Source: Streptomyces xanthii
Lineage (GTDB): Bacteria; Actinomycetota; Actinomycetes; Streptomycetales; Streptomycetaceae
NCBI RefSeq assembly: GCF_014621695.1
Contig: NZ_CP061281.1
Span: forward strand, 3,906,001-3,970,000
Length of the DNA stretch: 64,000 nt
Direction: 5' to 3'
Shown: one piece after another, positions 30,466 through 36,355 of the stretch
Layout: each line of letters starts with the position of its first letter
How positions within the stretch are numbered: the stretch's first letter is position 1
Position numbers and translations under genes: made by a program
Notes under the pieces: generated by a model
What the model saw: only the letters and a program-made list of their open reading frames with translations
Databases searched by the model: none
What the model was told of the DNA's origin: nothing

Positions 30466-30538
30466 GGGGCCTTAGCTCAGTTGGTAGAGCGCTGTCTTTG
30501 CATGGCAGATGTCAGGGGTTCGACTCCCCTAGGCTCCA
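30466..30538 (+). tRNA. tRNA-Ala (TGC)
   Basis: 73 nt. Acceptor GGGGCCT with AGGCTCC (one G-U pair), discriminator A; anticodon loop TTTGCAT, anticodon TGC; T-loop GGTTCGACTCC. The CCA is not encoded. The accessory cluster begins about 275 bp downstream. Confidence 0.97.
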
Positions 30539-30548
30539 CTCGCATATA

Positions 30549-30588
30549 CCCCTCTGATCTGCGGAAACGCGATCAGGGGGGTCTTTTT
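30549..30588 (+). terminator. Terminator after tRNA-Ala
   Basis: CCCCTCTGATC (30549-30559) pairs with GATCAGGGGGG (30571-30581), followed by TCTTTTT, an unusually good U-tract for this genome. Confidence 0.88.
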
Positions 30589-30812
30589 GCGTCCCGATCC
30601 CCCGTGCCGGCGTGCGGTCGCGGTCGTACGGACAGGCGGCTTCGTGAGCCCGGGGGCTCGGGGCCGGCGGTGTTTGCTGCCCCTGCTGATTCCGTGGTGC
30701 CCCCCGTACCCGTGCCGAGGGGGCGGTCCTCCCGTTCCAGGTGCGGTCATGGCCGGTGGCGGTCGGCGGAATCCGTTGTCCGTGACCCGGCGCAGCCGCG
30801 AGGCTCGATCAC

Positions 30813-32045
30813 GTGATCAGCAATCTGGTTGGAGAAGACCTCCGTCCCCCGCTCGTCCGGTCCTTCGCGCAACTCGCGTCGCTGGATCCGGACCGGCCCG
30901 TCGTCACCCTGTTCAGCGGTGGCCTGGACAGCTCGTACCTGCTGCTGCGGCTGCGGCGGATGGGCGTCCGTGAGATCCACGCGGTGAGCATCGACATCGG
31001 CGAGGACGAGTCCTGCACCTACAAGCGTCAGGTGGCCGAGGCGCTCGGCGCCCGGATCCACATCCTCGACCGGCGGGAGGAGTTCGCCGCCCGGCACGTG
31101 GCACCCGCCATCGCCGCACAGGCCGTCTACCTGGGCATCCATCCGGTGAGCTCCAGCCTCAGCCGCCCGCTCATCGCCCAGGCCGCGGTCGACCTCGCCC
31201 GCGCCATCGGCGCGCAGGCCGTACTGCACACCGCCAACCGCTCGCAGAACACGCTGCGCCGTCTTAACGGGGCGCTGGGGTTGCTCGGCTACGAGGGTGC
31301 CTTCGGCAGCCCGTACGACCTGGACCCGGTCACCCGGGAGCAGAAGCTGGCCGAGCTGGGCGAAGCGGGCGTCGGGCTGCTGGCCGGGCGCATCGTCAGC
31401 GGCGACTCCAATCTGTGGTGCCGGGAGTTCGAGTCGGGCATCCTCGACGATCCCGAGCTGCACGAGGTGCCGGAGGAGATGTACACGTGGAGCAGGCCCA
31501 CCGCCGCTCCTGGTGAGACGGAGCGCCTGACCGTGGCGTTCGAGCACGGCCTGCCGGTCGCCGTCGACGGCGTTCCCCTCGGGCTGACCGAGATGATCGA
31601 CCAGCTCAACCGGCGCGTCGGTGCGTACGGCCTCGGCCGCTACTCGGGCCTCGAGCACCTCGACCACGGCGAGAAGGTCCTGGAGATCCGGGAGATGCCG
31701 GCCGCCTGGCTGCTCCTGAACACCTACCGGCACGTCGAGAGCGCCTGCCTGGATGCCGAACTCATCCGGGAGAAGCGGCACTTGGAGCAGGTGTGGACCC
31801 GGGAGGTCCTGGAGGGCCGCTGGTTCGGCGAACTGCGGCTGTCCGTGCAGGCGTTCATCGACAGCTGCGCCGCCCGCACCACGGGGTCCGTGACCTGGCA
31901 GCTGCGCACGGGGGGAGCCGACACCCGGTCCATCAGCGCCCGCAGACCGCTCTACCTGCGCGACCGCGAGCTGTGGGAGGAGCACACGATCGCCGCCGAG
32001 TCCGCGCCGTTCGCCCCGCAGCCGACGCTGCTCGCCACCGTCTGA
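30813..32045 (+). CDS. Argininosuccinate-synthase-related ATP-dependent ligase
   Basis: A 410-aa PP-loop enzyme. The ATP pyrophosphatase loop is FSGGLDSSYLLL (about residues 34-45), followed by AVSIDIGEDESC as in ArgG. The citrulline/aspartate region is diverged: the family GNDQVRFE is replaced by ANRSQNTLRRLNGAL, while SGDSNLWCREFESGILDDPE still aligns with ArgG. I infer an AMP-forming condensation of a carbonyl or ureido group with an amino-acid amine, on a substrate other than citrulline. GTG start with a weak ribosome-binding site. It is first of three co-directional genes with the dioxygenase (48 bp) and the exporter. A primary-metabolism ArgG role is unlikely given the divergence and context. 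Confidence 0.8.
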   Translation: MISNLVGEDLRPPLVRSFAQLASLDPDRPVVTLFSGGLDSSYLLLRLRRMGVREIHAVSIDIGEDESCTYKRQVAEALGARIHILDRREEFAARHVAPAIAAQAVYLGIHPVSSSLSRPLIAQAAVDLARAIGAQAVLHTANRSQNTLRRLNGALGLLGYEGAFGSPYDLDPVTREQKLAELGEAGVGLLAGRIVSGDSNLWCREFESGILDDPELHEVPEEMYTWSRPTAAPGETERLTVAFEHGLPVAVDGVPLGLTEMIDQLNRRVGAYGLGRYSGLEHLDHGEKVLEIREMPAAWLLLNTYRHVESACLDAELIREKRHLEQVWTREVLEGRWFGELRLSVQAFIDSCAARTTGSVTWQLRTGGADTRSISARRPLYLRDRELWEEHTIAAESAPFAPQPTLLATV

Positions 32046-32093
32046 CCCGGCAGACCGGACCGACGCCACCCCGCACTTCCTCTGGAGCACCCC

Positions 32094-32837
32094 ATGGCCA
32101 CCGCCATCGCCCACCCCGTCGCCACCCACCCCGTCACCGCCGAGGCCGTCGAGGCCCTGGCCGGCCCCGGTGGGCACCTGATCCCCGCCGCCGACTTCTC
32201 CGCGCTCGTCGGCGCGGACCCGGCCGAGTGGAACCGCTTCGCCCGGCACTGGGACGAGCTGACCCTCGACACCCACATGGCCGACGGCGGCACCTACCGC
32301 CACCGCCGCTACGGACAGTTCGACCTCGACCCGGCCGCCGCGGAACTCACGCTCCTGCCGCACGCGCCGTACCGCCAGGAGACCGACGTCAACCCGCTCA
32401 ACGGGGGCGTCGAGCGCGTCTTCGACCCGCTGACCGAGTCCTTCGCCACCGACCCGCTGCTGCGCTCGGTCCTGGTCGAACTCGGCCGGATCTTCAGCGC
32501 GGTCGACGGCACCACCGCGTGGAACGTGAAGCTCCACCCGTACCGCATCGCCGCGTCCGCCGACCAGACCGGTCAGCCCGCGCCCGAGGGGCGGCACCGC
32601 GACGGCGTCACCTTCATCACCTCGCTGATGATCGGCCGAACCAACGTGACCGGAGGCGAGAGCGGTGTGTACACCGACGAAGGCGAACACCTCATGACCA
32701 CTACGCTGTCCCGGCCCGGCGACATCCTGCTCGGCGACGACCGCCGCACGCTGCACTCGGTGACCCCGGTACAGCCGCGGGACCCCGGCCTCGCCGCGCA
32801 CCGCGACGTCCTGGTGATCGCCTACACCGCGCGCTGA
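32094..32837 (+). CDS. 2-oxoglutarate/Fe(II)-dependent dioxygenase (PF10014 type)
   Basis: A 247-aa protein of the 2OG-Fe dioxygenase family that includes the Bacillus thuringiensis L-isoleucine 4-hydroxylase. Iron ligands fit HRDG (His and Asp, about residue 165) and LHSVTPV (distal His), and the 2OG-binding arginine fits HRDVLVIAYTAR. RQETDVNPLNGGVERVFDP and TGGESGVYTDEG are further family blocks. The likely reaction is hydroxylation of a free amino acid or of the ligase product. ATG start with CTGGAG upstream. The order dioxygenase then EamA exporter parallels the Bacillus hil operon. Confidence 0.85.
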   Translation: MATAIAHPVATHPVTAEAVEALAGPGGHLIPAADFSALVGADPAEWNRFARHWDELTLDTHMADGGTYRHRRYGQFDLDPAAAELTLLPHAPYRQETDVNPLNGGVERVFDPLTESFATDPLLRSVLVELGRIFSAVDGTTAWNVKLHPYRIAASADQTGQPAPEGRHRDGVTFITSLMIGRTNVTGGESGVYTDEGEHLMTTTLSRPGDILLGDDRRTLHSVTPVQPRDPGLAAHRDVLVIAYTAR

Positions 32838-32887
32838 CGCGTACTCCCTTCCCTACGCCCGCCTTCCCGAGCCACCCGAGGAGCCCC

Positions 32888-33982
32888 ATGCCCGCCACCG
32901 CGCCCCGCCGTGCCTGGCTGACCGACCTGCCCGTCCTGCTGGTCGCGGTGGTCTGGGGTTCCAGCTATCTGGCCGCGAAGGAGGTCACCACCGCCCAGAC
33001 CGTGCTCGCCGTTCTGGTCCTGCGCTTCGCGGTCGTCCTGCCCGCGCTCGTCGTCGTCGGCCGGCGCAAGTTGCGCGCCATGGACCGCACACAGATACGC
33101 GGAGCCGGGACCCTCGGCCTCATCCTCGCCGGGATCTTCCTCCTGGAGACGTACGGCGTCGTGCAGACCTCGGCGACCAACGCCGGGCTCATCATCAGCC
33201 TCACCATGATCCTCACACCGGTCGCGGAGAGCAGGCTGCGGGGCACCCCGCTGCCCCGATCGTTCGTCGCGGCGGCCGCGCTCTCGGTGCTCGGCGTGGT
33301 GCTCCTCACCCAGGGCGCCGGCTTCACCGAGCCGTCCCTCGGCGACCTGCTGATGCTGGGCGCCGCGGTCGCCAGGACCGTGCACGTCCTCGCGATGTCC
33401 CGGATGAAGTCCGCGCAGGGCGCTGACTCCCTGTCCATGACCACGGTCCAGCTCTCCTCCGCGGTCCTGGTGTTCGCCCTGCTCAGCGCGGTGCCCGGCA
33501 CCGGCACCGCGCCCTGGACGGCCGCCGCGGACCTCAGCGCGGCGGGCTGGCTGGGGTTGCTCTACCTGTCCGCCTTCTGCACCCTGTTCGCCTTCTTCGT
33601 GCAGATGTGGGCCGTGCGGCGTACCTCCCCGTCCCGGGTCAGCCTGCTGCTCGGCACCGAGCCGGTGTGGGCCGCGGTCGTCGGCATCACGCTCGCCGGC
33701 GACCGGCCGGGCTCGCTCGGACTCGCGGGCGCCGTCCTCGTCCTCGTCGGTACGACGTGGGGCCGCACGGCGGCCGAGCCCGCATCGAAGGAAGAGCCCG
33801 CACCGAAGGAGGAGTCCGCACCGAAGGAGGAGTCCGAAGAGCCTGCTGCGGCGGCAACGGCGGCCGCGGCGCAGACCACCGCCGGGCCCGCACCGCTGCC
33901 CGAGAGCGCCCTCGGATCAGTCGTCGAGCCAGCCGGAGCGGACGGCACACACCCCGGCCTGGAACCGGCTCGCCGCTCCTAG
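32888..33982 (+). CDS. EamA/RhtA-type (DMT superfamily) exporter
   Basis: A 364-aa protein with ten predicted helices in two EamA repeats; the first starts LPVLLVAVVWGSSYLAAKEV and the second is marked by LGDLLMLGAAVARTVHVLAM and SAFCTLFAFFVQMWAVR. Such transporters export amino acids (RhtA) or metabolites. ATG 32888 follows GAGGAG. Unusually, a hydrophilic tail of about 70 residues follows the last helix; it contains three tandem copies of a 6-residue unit (33782-33835) and is Ala/Glu-rich. The 3' end overlaps the convergent LuxR gene by 66 bp. Most likely it exports the product of the two upstream enzymes. Confidence 0.85.
   Translation: MPATAPRRAWLTDLPVLLVAVVWGSSYLAAKEVTTAQTVLAVLVLRFAVVLPALVVVGRRKLRAMDRTQIRGAGTLGLILAGIFLLETYGVVQTSATNAGLIISLTMILTPVAESRLRGTPLPRSFVAAAALSVLGVVLLTQGAGFTEPSLGDLLMLGAAVARTVHVLAMSRMKSAQGADSLSMTTVQLSSAVLVFALLSAVPGTGTAPWTAAADLSAAGWLGLLYLSAFCTLFAFFVQMWAVRRTSPSRVSLLLGTEPVWAAVVGITLAGDRPGSLGLAGAVLVLVGTTWGRTAAEPASKEEPAPKEESAPKEESEEPAAAATAAAAQTTAGPAPLPESALGSVVEPAGADGTHPGLEPARRS
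33782..33835 (+). repeat. Three tandem 18-bp repeats in the exporter tail
   Basis: Unit GCACCGAAGGAGGAGTCC: the last two copies are identical, the first has four mismatches. They encode APKEES-like units. Copy number is likely to vary between strains. Confidence 0.85.
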
Positions 33983-34939
33983 CCGTTCGGACAGCTCGGC
34001 GACGAGGCGGCGGACCGTGCGTTCGGACAGGCCCAGCTTGCGGGCCATCGCCTCGTCCGTGAGGCCGCCCGCCAGCATCCGCAGCAGTTCGCGGTGGCGG
34101 CCCGACGGCAGCCAGCCGCTCCCGTCGTCCGGCCGGTCCGGCTCGTCATGGGCGTCGGCGAGCACACTCGCCGACGCCCAGCAGTGCTCGAAGATCTCCC
34201 GAAACACCCCGACGAGGGTCTCGCCGCGCAGGACGACGGCCGCGATCTCCTCGTCGTTCCCGTCCGCGGGCCTGGGCGGCGCGGGCACGATGGCCGACGA
34301 GCGGTCCAGCACGATCAGCCGCAGGGGAAGGGTGTGCGCGGTGCGTACCTGCGCGCCCTCGGCGTTCAGTCGCCGCAGGTACGAGGCCATGTGCGGTACC
34401 GCGGCCACGGCCCCCAGATGGATCGTGCGGATGCGCACGCCGCGGCCGAGGGCGAGCCGGTCGCGCTCCAGGCCCGCCTCGATCATCTCGGTGGGCAGCG
34501 CGCGGCCGGGGTGCAGCGAGAGCACCTCGTCCTCGACCCGCTGCGAGGCGTCCTCCAGCGCCGCCGACACGTTCGCCGCCCCCGTCACCACCTCCAACTG
34601 GGCGTCGAGCAGGCCACGGACGCGCAGCGGGTGGAAGTCCACGACGAGCCGGTCGAGGGCCGCCCGGGTCTGCCGCATGGCGTCGAGGTAGGCGCCGGTG
34701 CTGCGATCCTCCTCGAGCAGGAGGTTGCGCAGCGCGGTGTCGGGCGAGAGCGCGGTCCACCCGCTCCTGGTGTCGGACGACGGTGTGAACAGACCCAGTT
34801 CGCCGAGCAGCTGGAGTGCCTCCGCGAACTCGGTGCCGTTCCAGCCCCGCGACGCGACGAGCGTCTCGGGATGCCAGTCGGCCGCGTCCAGCGCCGCCCG
34901 GTAGATCTCCCGCGCCCGCGCGCGTACGACGTCCTCCAC
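33917..34939 (-). CDS. LuxR C-terminal-type transcriptional regulator
   Basis: A 340-aa regulator. The N-terminal part resembles a TrmB-like winged helix (EFAEALQLLGELGLFTP, followed by a helical linker), the middle is a domain of about 150 residues with DRLALGRGVRIRTIHLG and LPLRLIVLDRSSAIVPAP, and the C-terminus is a GerE/LuxR HTH (GLTDEAMARKLGLSERTVRR, about residues 290-310). GTG 34939 is chosen for the AAGGGGGGG before it; the frame opens to 35002. It converges on the exporter and diverges from the secreted-peptide gene, so it may control either or both. The ligand is unknown. Confidence 0.85.
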   Translation of the reverse strand: MEDVVRARAREIYRAALDAADWHPETLVASRGWNGTEFAEALQLLGELGLFTPSSDTRSGWTALSPDTALRNLLLEEDRSTGAYLDAMRQTRAALDRLVVDFHPLRVRGLLDAQLEVVTGAANVSAALEDASQRVEDEVLSLHPGRALPTEMIEAGLERDRLALGRGVRIRTIHLGAVAAVPHMASYLRRLNAEGAQVRTAHTLPLRLIVLDRSSAIVPAPPRPADGNDEEIAAVVLRGETLVGVFREIFEHCWASASVLADAHDEPDRPDDGSGWLPSGRHRELLRMLAGGLTDEAMARKLGLSERTVRRLVAELSERLGAASRFQAGVCAVRSGWLDD

Positions 34940-35237
34940 CTGAACCCCCCCTTGCGCGCACGGCCGGGAGCCCAGGGGTCCCGTTGCGTGACGCGGCCCC
35001 AATGCCTGCCAAGATCCTAAGGAGCCGGGTCTCCCCCTGCCAGGCTTGGTTCGCCATACGGACGGGCGCTGAACCTACGGGCGCACGTCGAGCCTTACGG
35101 GCAGCTGCGAGGCGACGTCGGCGTGGGTCCGCTCCAGGCCATGGCCGGACCCGGAACCCTGTCAGGCGTAGCCACGGATCACCCCACCGGAACATGCTGG
35201 GCGCACACCCACCGAGCCCCGTTCCAGGAGGATTCCT

Positions 35238-35411
35238 GTGTCCGCTGCCCAGACCGCCGTCCGCACGCGCCGCCCGTCCGCCTTCCGGGGGCTGCTCACC
35301 GCACTCGCCGCCGCCCTCGTCCTCGGCGGTGCGGTGGCGGCCGGCACTGACGCCGGGCAGCGGGGTGCGGTGGGCACGGCCGCATCCGGTGACTCGCTCA
35401 TCTGGGGCTGA
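35238..35411 (+). CDS. Small secreted peptide (57 aa), candidate signal
   Basis: Not recognised as a named family. GTG start after a perfect AGGAGG, 7 nt away. The N-terminus is basic (VRTRRPSAFRG), then a hydrophobic core (LLTALAAALVLGGAVAAG) and a short tail of about 20 residues ending SGDSLIWG. This is the layout of an exported peptide with a small mature C-terminal part. It stops 5 bp before the next gene, which has no ribosome-binding site of its own, so the two are probably translationally coupled. The start is 298 bp from the divergent LuxR start. A pheromone-like role is only inference. Confidence 0.7.
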   Translation: MSAAQTAVRTRRPSAFRGLLTALAAALVLGGAVAAGTDAGQRGAVGTAASGDSLIWG

Positions 35412-35416
35412 CCTCG

Positions 35417-36223
35417 GTGCCGGCACCTCGCGTCGCCGTCATCGCCCCGCTCACCGGGCCGCGGGCGGCCTGGGGTGCGGTTCTGCTCCGCGAACTGGCC
35501 CGGGTGCGGGCCGTCCGGCCGGGCGCCGCCGACTGGCACGTGCACGACGAGACCCCGGACGTGGCCGCCACGGTCGTCGGCCTCGGCTACACCGCGGTCC
35601 TCGGCCACAGCGACCCCGCGATCACGGTGCGGGCCCGGAAGACCTACCAGGCGGCAGGGCTGCCGAGCCTGCTCCCCTTCGTCCACGCCGGACCGCCCGC
35701 CCTGAGCTGGGCCCCTGACGACGTGGCGCTCGCCTCCACGATCGTCCTGGCCGCGGCCGCGCTCGGCACCGGCCTCACGGTCGTCCGCGACGACGGGCCC
35801 TACTGGGCCGCGCTCGCCGACCGGGTCACCGCGGAGGCCCGCGCCACGGGCCTGGGGCCGGACGGCGTGCCCGCGGTCCTCGCGCCGCAGGAGCGCTTCT
35901 CGGCACTGCGGCCGCCCACGGCCGGGCCCGTGCTCGCCCTGGCCGAGTGCGGCCTCGCCTCCTTCTCCGCTCTCCGCGACGCGGCGGCGGATCAGGACGT
36001 GTGGGCCGTCCACCCGCACACCTGTGCGCCGCGCCGCGCCTGGACCGCGGCGACGGCCCTGGCCCAGGCCTTGGAGACGGCCCTGTCGGGCCCGGCCCTG
36101 ACCACCGCGATCCGCGCCCGCTCGGCGGCCCTCCTCGCCGCCCGCGGCGGAATCCTCGGCGAGGCGTGGCGCGTCTCGCGCGTACGGGAGGTGTGCGTGC
36201 CCGGCCGGTCGTGCACGCGATGA
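35417..36223 (+). CDS. Leaderless type-1 periplasmic-binding-protein-like protein
   Basis: A 268-aa protein. The N-terminus PRVAVIAPLTGPRAAWGAVLLRE resembles the first strand-helix of leucine-binding-type (Peripla_BP_6) domains, and VLGHSDPAITVRARKTYQAA, SLLPFVHAG and GTGLTVVRDD match later elements of that fold. No signal peptide or lipobox is present, so it is probably cytoplasmic. GTG start 5 bp after the peptide stop. It may be a ligand sensor rather than a transporter part, since no ABC permease is nearby. Assignment is by fold pattern only. Confidence 0.65.
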   Translation: MPAPRVAVIAPLTGPRAAWGAVLLRELARVRAVRPGAADWHVHDETPDVAATVVGLGYTAVLGHSDPAITVRARKTYQAAGLPSLLPFVHAGPPALSWAPDDVALASTIVLAAAALGTGLTVVRDDGPYWAALADRVTAEARATGLGPDGVPAVLAPQERFSALRPPTAGPVLALAECGLASFSALRDAAADQDVWAVHPHTCAPRRAWTAATALAQALETALSGPALTTAIRARSAALLAARGGILGEAWRVSRVREVCVPGRSCTR

Positions 36224-36266
36224 ACGCGGCCCTGACTCGGTGGCGAGGGTGACGCTCCACCACCCG

Positions 36267-36313
36267 AAGAGCCCCTCGGGCCCGGTCGTGGAGACCGGGC
36301 CCGAGGGGCTCTT
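36267..36313. terminator. Strong bidirectional terminator closing the accessory region
   Basis: A 21-bp perfect stem (36267-36287 with 36293-36313) with a 5-nt loop, then TTTTG on the plus strand and a purine-rich flank on the other. It separates the binding-protein-like gene (+) from the convergent DUF5324 gene (-). Confidence 0.92.
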
Positions 36314-36355
36314 TTGTGTCCGGGCGGCGCCGGGGCGAGGCGGGCGCGCGCGGCC

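What the first reader, a model, noticed from the sequence alone, without database searches (positions are those of the whole stretch)
30813..33982. Three-gene pathway: ArgG-related ligase, 2OG-Fe dioxygenase and EamA exporter beside tRNA-Ala
Seen: three co-directional genes with short gaps; an ATP PP-loop (SGGLDSS) enzyme whose citrulline-site motif GNDQVRF is replaced; a PF10014-type dioxygenase with HRD...H ligands; and an RhtA-like exporter. Known: Bacillus L-isoleucine hydroxylase operons pair a PF10014 dioxygenase with an RhtA exporter. Inference: the cluster joins an aspartate-like amine to a ureido or carbonyl substrate, hydroxylates it, and exports a modified amino acid or toxin. It interrupts otherwise conserved oriC-proximal synteny downstream of tRNA-Ala.
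Basis: partly seen in the sequence, partly recalled or inferred. Interest (0 to 1): 0.78.

Follow-up and report, generated by a model that had tools for sequence, protein, structure and literature searches.

The report
Probable nitrile amino acid gene island
A chromosome of the Streptomyces kind carries a small gene island that probably turns the amide group of an amino acid into a nitrile, hydroxylates the molecule and pumps it out, using an enzyme related to one known from a fungal pathway.

Summary
The three genes are real and linked. Gene A (30813-32045) is not an arginine-pathway ligase: its nearest solved relative is the nitrile synthetase ArtA (E 2e-93, 43% identity; best ArgG E 4e-43). 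It has the three residues named as key amide contacts of ArtA and lacks two positions recalled as ArgG aspartate contacts. A separate ArgG over the curated cut-off lies elsewhere in the genome. B is a PF10014 dioxygenase, C an EamA exporter. A, B and C adjoin in 13 of 26 same-genus genomes with an A-type match (one copy damaged), once in the order B-A-C with distant B and C; 12 have A without B and C, and of 6 of these whose neighbours I profiled, 3 lie beside NRPS-type genes. The unit is wider than reported: a 5.8-kb block behind tRNA-Ala that also carries a LuxR-type regulator and a binding-protein-like gene. It is missing from the matching site of sister genomes and inverted or elsewhere in others. 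Substrate and product are unknown; Gln or Asn is a guess. New variant of a known kind.

The parts
30813..32045 (+). Gene A: ArgG-related PP-loop enzyme, probable ATP-dependent nitrile synthetase (410 aa)
   Evidence: NF038212 567.5 bits; PDB 9lei/9leh nitrile synthetase E 2e-93 and 4e-93; Q145, S196, D198 = ArtA Q146, S197, D199; model vs six ArtA chains TM 0.92-0.95 by target length
32094..32837 (+). Gene B: PF10014 Fe(II)/2-oxoglutarate dioxygenase (247 aa), presumed ligands H168, D170, H221
   Evidence: PF10014 E 2e-66; PDB 3pl0, 9dqp, L-isoleucine-4-hydroxylase 6lnh, TqaL 7eeh; positions
32888..33982 (+). Gene C: EamA-family exporter (364 aa)
   Evidence: PF00892 8e-27; next to A and B in 13 of 26 genomes
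33917..35002 (-). Gene D: LuxR-type (GerE HTH) regulator; its 3' end overlaps the 3' end of C by 66 bases; true start probably near 34924, where homology to relatives begins
   Evidence: PF00196 4e-8; relative at E<=1e-60 in 3 of 41 same-genus genomes, two of them ABC-positive; the third ABC-positive genome of that draw (G002) has only a remnant
35417..36223 (+). Gene E: predicted type I periplasmic-binding-protein fold without room for a signal peptide; possible cytosolic ligand sensor
   Evidence: no Pfam match; AF2 model pLDDT 86.6; the eight best PDB matches are amino-acid-binding proteins, E 5e-10 to 2e-8, TM 0.48-0.67 by query length; frame opens only at 35393
30588..36354 (.). 5.77-kb inserted block A-B-C-D-E, absent from the matching site of a sister genome (L103)
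   Evidence: homology to L103 stops at 30587 and resumes at 36355; order of flanking genes
30466..30539 (+). tRNA-Ala (TGC) at the left edge of the block
   Evidence: ARAGORN
36268..36312 (+). Terminator-like 20-bp stem at the right edge, after E
   Evidence: 2 overlapping sites found, 0.6 expected

Best explanation
The block is a small, moved-about amino acid pathway. Gene A (an ArtA-type, ArgG-derived PP-loop enzyme) adenylates the oxygen of a primary carboxamide, most likely the side-chain amide of a free amino acid such as Gln or Asn or a hydroxylated form of it. Because the aspartate site is altered, no second substrate displaces AMP; AMP is eliminated and a nitrile remains. Gene B hydroxylates the amino acid before or after this step, gene C exports the product, and D with E probably regulate the block in response to the product or its precursor. 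Shown: gene content, linkage, residue pattern, insertion. Inferred from homology: nitrile chemistry, hydroxylation, export. Guessed: substrate, order of steps, role of D and E.
For: A is far closer to ArtA (9lei/9leh, E 2e-93, 161 of 378 aligned residues identical) than to any solved ArgG (4u7j E 4e-43, 111 of 346). Q145, S196 and D198 match ArtA Q146, S197, D199, named as key amide-interacting residues in PMC13060819, and are invariant in 29 aligned sequences, A included. Two positions recalled as ArgG aspartate contacts (T and D of TGKGND) and one recalled citrulline contact (Y) read N, T and R in all 27 A proteins compared (L088 apart), and N, S, R in ArtA. The AF2 model fits the six ArtA chains at TM 0.92-0.95 (target length), rmsd 1.6-2.4, and the ArgG chains at TM 0.70-0.87, rmsd 3.6 or more. 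A separate ArgG gene exists. A, B and C adjoin in 13 of 26 genomes, one with rearranged order (L073). A rows and B rows share a longest-contig length in 16 of 120 A rows: 3 of the 30 best, 13 of the next 21 (66-77% identity), 0 of the 69 ranked below. 16 B-like loci at 45-62% identity in A-less genomes have no A or C match at 1e-4 in the 7-11 kb fetched. A divergent ArgG-like gene (L088) adjoins an asparagine-oxygenase-like gene and an NRPS gene. Three other A genes lie beside NRPS-type genes.
Against: No activity, substrate or metabolite evidence. The S197 and D199 equivalents are also present in ArgG, so only Q145 of the three tells the two apart. Most positions recalled as citrulline contacts are kept, so a ureido substrate is not excluded. 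12 of 26 genomes have A without B and C, so B and C are not part of A's chemistry everywhere. No residue separates the A proteins of ABC loci from the others, so nothing points to a particular substrate. One of the 16 A-less B-like loci (L146) has, by eye, an EamA-like gene about 1.1 kb away that did not match C, so dioxygenase-exporter neighbours may occur without A.
Confidence: 0.55

Rival explanations
1. A is a true ligase that still uses an amine nucleophile other than aspartate, making a substituted amidine, guanidine or amide that B then hydroxylates (closest to the first reader's view).
For: ArgG fold and several recalled ureido-contact positions are kept; the one search by the family's own names gave no paper on it (4 papers, all unrelated by title).
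Against: Positions recalled as aspartate contacts are replaced much as in ArtA; scores, Q145 and predicted fold favour ArtA.
Confidence: 0.15
2. A acts on a ureido group: it makes the citrulline adenylate as ArgG does but loses AMP without a nucleophile, giving a cyanamide (N-cyano-ornithine), which is then hydroxylated and exported.
For: Most recalled citrulline-contact positions are kept; the chemistry is the same elimination.
Against: The recalled citrulline-contact Tyr is Arg in A and ArtA; ArtA is reported as amide dehydrating; no search was made for a cyanamide precedent.
Confidence: 0.07
3. A and B serve different products and are neighbours only by shared history of the block.
For: 12 of 26 genomes have A without B and C. 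In L011 and L012 A is split between frames while B and C match over most of their length (could be sequencing error).
Against: The trio persists in order B-A-C with B and C at 46% and 48% identity (L073), and that A lies outside the main ABC group.
Confidence: 0.1
4. A is a second, regulated argininosuccinate synthase.
For: Fold; 188.9 bits to TIGR00032.
Against: Below the TIGR00032 cut-off of 268.2; recalled aspartate positions replaced; separate ArgG present.
Confidence: 0.02

Closest known systems
ArtA/NitB nitrile synthetase of auranthine biosynthesis (PDB 9leh, 9lei; described second-hand in PMC13060819)
   Same: ArgG-derived fold, PP-loop, Q/S/D amide residues, altered aspartate positions, 43% identity over residues 15-393 of A
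   Different: ArtA serves an NRPS alkaloid (fungal origin from general knowledge and a title); here a bacterial block with a PF10014 dioxygenase and exporter and no NRPS gene among its five. The ArtA and NitB papers themselves were not seen.
AMDH domain plus CysJ/AlbVIII hydroxylase of cystobactamid and albicidin (PMC7966384, passages seen)
   Same: Domain with an SGGKD ATP motif dehydrates asparagine to beta-cyanoalanine beside a 2OG hydroxylase; a methoxylated beta-cyanoalanine is mentioned for albicidin
   Different: Embedded in an NRPS and acting on carrier-bound Asn; A is a stand-alone ArgG relative. The two were not aligned here.
IDO / Hil operons of Bacillus and Pantoea (PMC3684760, passages seen)
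   Same: PF10014 amino acid hydroxylase with, in the IDO operon, an RhtA-family exporter; free amino acid substrates
   Different: They carry a dehydrogenase/reductase; no ArgG-like gene is named in the passages; B scores 29.9 bits to HilB against a cut-off of 350
Biosynthetic ArgG
   Same: Fold, PP-loop, several positions recalled as citrulline contacts
   Different: Recalled aspartate positions replaced, below the family cut-off, separate ArgG in the genome

Membership tests
NCBIfam NF038212 argG_rel | score over curated cut-off 425 | tested here: met
   567.5 bits
ArtA-type nitrile synthetase | closer to ArtA than to ArgG in sequence and fold | tested here: met
ArtA-type nitrile synthetase | Q146, S197, D199 amide residues | tested here: met
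   Q145, S196, D198 (the offset of 29 between the PDB chain and ArtA numbering is inferred from all three fitting at once); invariant in 29 aligned sequences
ArtA-type nitrile synthetase | ATP-dependent amide-to-nitrile activity | not testable with these tools
   needs an enzyme assay
Biosynthetic ArgG (TIGR00032) | score over cut-off 268.2 | tested here: not met
   188.9 bits
Biosynthetic ArgG (TIGR00032) | aspartate-site Thr and Asp (roles recalled) | tested here: not met
   N142 and T147 instead
PF10014 2OG-Fe dioxygenase | family score and HxD...H pattern | tested here: met
   223.8 bits; H168, D170, H221
IDO/Hil operon | HilB-type dioxygenase equivalog and a dehydrogenase/reductase neighbour | tested here: not met
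   29.9 of 350 bits; none of the five island genes matches a dehydrogenase
EamA family (PF00892) | family score over 28.2 | tested here: met
   94.6 bits
Integrase-driven tRNA island | integrase gene and direct repeat of the tRNA end | tested here: not met
   between the two edges only one shared 11-mer, outside the tRNA; none of the five genes matches an integrase

The most novel reading that the evidence does not exclude
The island makes a free hydroxylated cyano-amino acid in which the hydroxyl sits on the carbon bearing the nitrile: a cyanohydrin that, once exported and not protected by methylation, falls apart and releases hydrogen cyanide. That would be a cyanide-releasing route in bacteria that starts from an ordinary amide.
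Probability: 0.07. Interest if true: 0.85.

Novelty: new variant of a known kind. Interest (0 to 1): 0.6.

Why it matters
'Argininosuccinate synthase-related' genes may carry a misleading name. If they are nitrile synthetases, the databases hold a labelled but unread set of nitrile pathways in actinomycetes, some beside NRPS genes and some in this minimal exporter-linked form. Three genes are few enough to express in a laboratory host, so an ArgG-derived amide dehydratase paired with a hydroxylase could be tested directly, with possible use for making nitrile amino acids without cyanide.

Tried and rejected
Biosynthetic argG: rejected. Aspartate-type ligation: disfavoured. Integrase-driven tRNA island: no integrase among the five genes, no att-like repeat. 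Substrate prediction from residues that separate the A proteins of ABC loci (15) from the others (12): none found. NRPS specificity code next to other A genes: only 2 of 13 loci gave a domain and the codes were not readable. Search for the PDB entries by code gave 0 papers. PMC13336071 (passages) on PF10014 loops gave no clue to the substrate. Searches for this gene set or enzyme class in print: 15 of 2,920 papers listed; 3 of 4; 12 of 119; 12 of 18; 4 of 4; 10 of 10; 0 papers; none of the listed titles describes this gene set, but the longer lists were cut and only open-access papers are held. The expected product of Gln dehydration, 2-amino-4-cyanobutanoate, only marginally slowed E. coli at 800 ug/mL and is called non-toxic (PMC13320846, passages), which argues against a strong methionine-antimetabolite role. 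A sigma-70 scan found no promoter-like site in the block.
Full report
WHAT IS THERE. Three co-directional genes with gaps of 48 and 50 bases lie behind tRNA-Ala: A 30813-32045, B 32094-32837, C 32888-33982. A carries both Pfam argininosuccinate synthase domains and matches NCBIfam NF038212 'argininosuccinate synthase-related protein' at 567.5 bits (cut-off 425); B is PF10014; C is EamA. The genome has 8.35 Mb in 3 contigs. That it and its 'same genus' genomes are Streptomyces is inferred: close relatives are named so, and five fetched contigs have the lengths of named Streptomyces records.

A IS NOT ARGG. The genome holds a separate ArgG at 459.6 bits to TIGR00032; A scores 188.9, below the 268.2 cut-off. 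Against the solved structures A finds 'nitrile synthetase' first (9lei, 9leh; E 2e-93 and 4e-93; named ArtA), then ArgGs (best 4e-43). Over the printed alignments 161 of 378 residues agree with ArtA and 111 of 346 with the ArgG of M. thermoresistibile (organism). PMC13060819 (introduction, part 1 of 2 of the discussion, and passages seen) says that ArtA/NitB catalyse only amide-to-nitrile dehydration and names Q146, S197, D199 as key amide-interacting residues. A has Q145, S196, D198; the numbering offset is my inference. In ArgG the first is Gly, while S and D are shared. The T and D of ArgG's TGKGND (recalled as aspartate contacts) and a Tyr (recalled as a citrulline contact) read N, T and R in all 27 A proteins compared (L088 not counted; it has T, S, R) and N, S, R in ArtA. 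In that tree ArtA falls among the bacterial A proteins, but its exact place is weak (36). Q145, N146, R150, S196, D198 and R293 are invariant in 29 aligned sequences, A and the divergent L088 included. The predicted structure (pLDDT 90.8) matches the six ArtA chains at target TM 0.92-0.95, rmsd 1.6-2.4, and the ArgG chains at 0.70-0.87, rmsd 3.6 or more.

MECHANISM. ArgG adenylates the ureido oxygen of citrulline and aspartate displaces AMP (established knowledge, recalled). If the oxygen of a carboxamide is adenylated and no amine enters, loss of AMP gives a nitrile; this is the route proposed in PMC13060819 for PesC and said to resemble that of other ATP-dependent nitrile synthetases. That A does this is inference from homology.

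LINKAGE. NF038212 exceeds its cut-off in 8 of 150 same-genus genomes, in 24 of 392 of a larger draw that includes those 8, and in 1 of 396 across the phylum, the window's own genome (E limit 1e-90). Of the 26 genomes with E<=1e-75, 13 have A, B and C together, 12 have A without B or C at tblastn 1e-4, and 1 (L088) is a divergent ArgG-like gene. One of the 13 (L054) is damaged: A and B are truncated, C is whole. One (L073) has order B-A-C; its A lies outside the main ABC group (ultrafast bootstrap 100) next to L047 (95), and its B lies outside the group that holds both the other ABC dioxygenases and the 16 nearer B-like genes of A-less genomes (midpoint root, supports not printed). So either the trio was put together more than once or B and C evolved fast. 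In an independent collection 12 of 14 loci have A, B and C (L014 with A and B truncated; in L011 and L012 A is split between frames), 1 (Frankia) has A-B up to the contig end, 1 has an A fragment alone; at least five of these are the same genomes as. Of 120 listed A relatives, 16 share their longest-contig length with a listed B relative: 3 of the 30 best, 13 of the next 21 (66-77% identity), 0 of the 69 ranked below; both lists were cut at 120, so pairs may be missed. None of 16 B-like loci at 45-62% identity, from 15 A-less genomes, had an A or C match at 1e-4 in the 7-11 kb fetched; one (L146) has by eye an EamA-like gene about 1.1 kb away.

OTHER SETTINGS OF A. Neighbours were profiled at 6 of the 12 loci with A alone. 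L047 has adenylation and condensation genes and an MFS gene; L052 an NRPS with aminotransferase and luciferase-like domains plus an adenylation-carrier gene directly before A; L075 an adenylation-carrier gene directly before A; L050 an MFS gene and weak FemAB-like and ATP-grasp matches below cut-off; L086 a flavin reductase (one neighbour profiled); L078 one neighbour without a match. L088 has an NRPS and a dioxygenase closest to asparagine oxygenase 2og5 (E 2e-54). These fit a nitrile building block made from an amide amino acid, but do not prove it.

THE ISLAND. In the window tRNA-Ala (30539) is 5.8 kb from the DUF5324-like gene (36356; that name is recalled, not from a call). In 5 of 12 A-less genomes, chosen by me, tRNA-Ala is followed within 0.13-1.33 kb by that gene and then the PPIase; in 5 of 12 neither was matched in about 8 kb behind the tRNA; in 2 of 12 no tRNA match was found. 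Against L103 the window loses homology at 30587 and regains it at 36355. L080 carries the block at the same site but inverted; L054 carries its damaged copy at the same site and orientation, with no match to the right-hand flank in the next 7 kb; nine other loci carry A, B and C with none of these flanks in the stretch fetched, and in L048 the contig ends just before A. Gene D (LuxR type) had a relative at E<=1e-60 in 3 of 41 genomes, two of them ABC-positive; the third ABC-positive genome of that draw has only a remnant; only 49 candidates per genome were scored, so absences are soft. Gene E has a predicted type I binding-protein fold (best matches amino-acid-binding proteins, E 5e-10, TM 0.48-0.67 for the top eight) and its frame leaves at most eight residues before its start, so no room for a signal peptide. 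I read D and E as regulator and sensor; this is a guess. No integrase or att-like repeat was found.

KNOWN SYSTEMS. PMC7966384 (passages) shows an NRPS-embedded AMDH domain with an SGGKD motif that dehydrates Asn to beta-cyanoalanine beside a 2OG hydroxylase, and mentions a methoxylated beta-cyanoalanine in an albicidin; it also reports that prior hydroxylation by CysJ mostly prevents the dehydration, a warning for assuming that both steps act on one molecule here. PMC3684760 (passages) describes IDO and Hil operons with PF10014 enzymes and RhtA exporters. The window's block resembles a stand-alone union of these two ideas with an ArtA-type enzyme. None of the papers listed describes this gene set by title; some lists were cut, and the ArtA and NitB papers are not held.

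VERDICT. Observation confirmed, linkage strong, chemistry reinterpreted as probable nitrile formation, product unknown.

Noticed in passing
L147, L148, L150, L151, L152: B-like PF10014 genes in A-less genomes lie beside a gene whose start reads like a YbdK-type carboxylate-amine ligase (GVEEEYFL or GAEEEFFL; by eye, no profile run): a possible different dioxygenase-ligase pair.
   Followed up: no
L088:8058-10270: Divergent ArgG-like gene (34% identity, Q kept, below the NF038212 cut-off) next to an asparagine-oxygenase-like gene and an NRPS gene.
   Followed up: partly
L047, L050, L052, L075, L086: Other NF038212 genes sit beside NRPS, adenylation-carrier, MFS or flavin reductase genes: an unread set of possible nitrile clusters.
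   Followed up: partly
L105, L108, L109, L111, L114 behind tRNA-Ala: In 5 of 12 A-less genomes neither right-hand flank gene was matched behind this tRNA-Ala: the site may be an insertion hot spot.
   Followed up: no
L014 and L054: Damaged copies of the block in which A and B are both truncated and abut each other.
   Followed up: partly
window:33917-33982: The 3' ends of the exporter C and the convergent regulator D overlap by 66 bases; C and D matches also overlap in 8 of the 12 A-B-C loci.
   Followed up: no
L145:5894-7198: A B-like dioxygenase (62%) without A is followed directly by an MFS-like gene (by eye).
   Followed up: no
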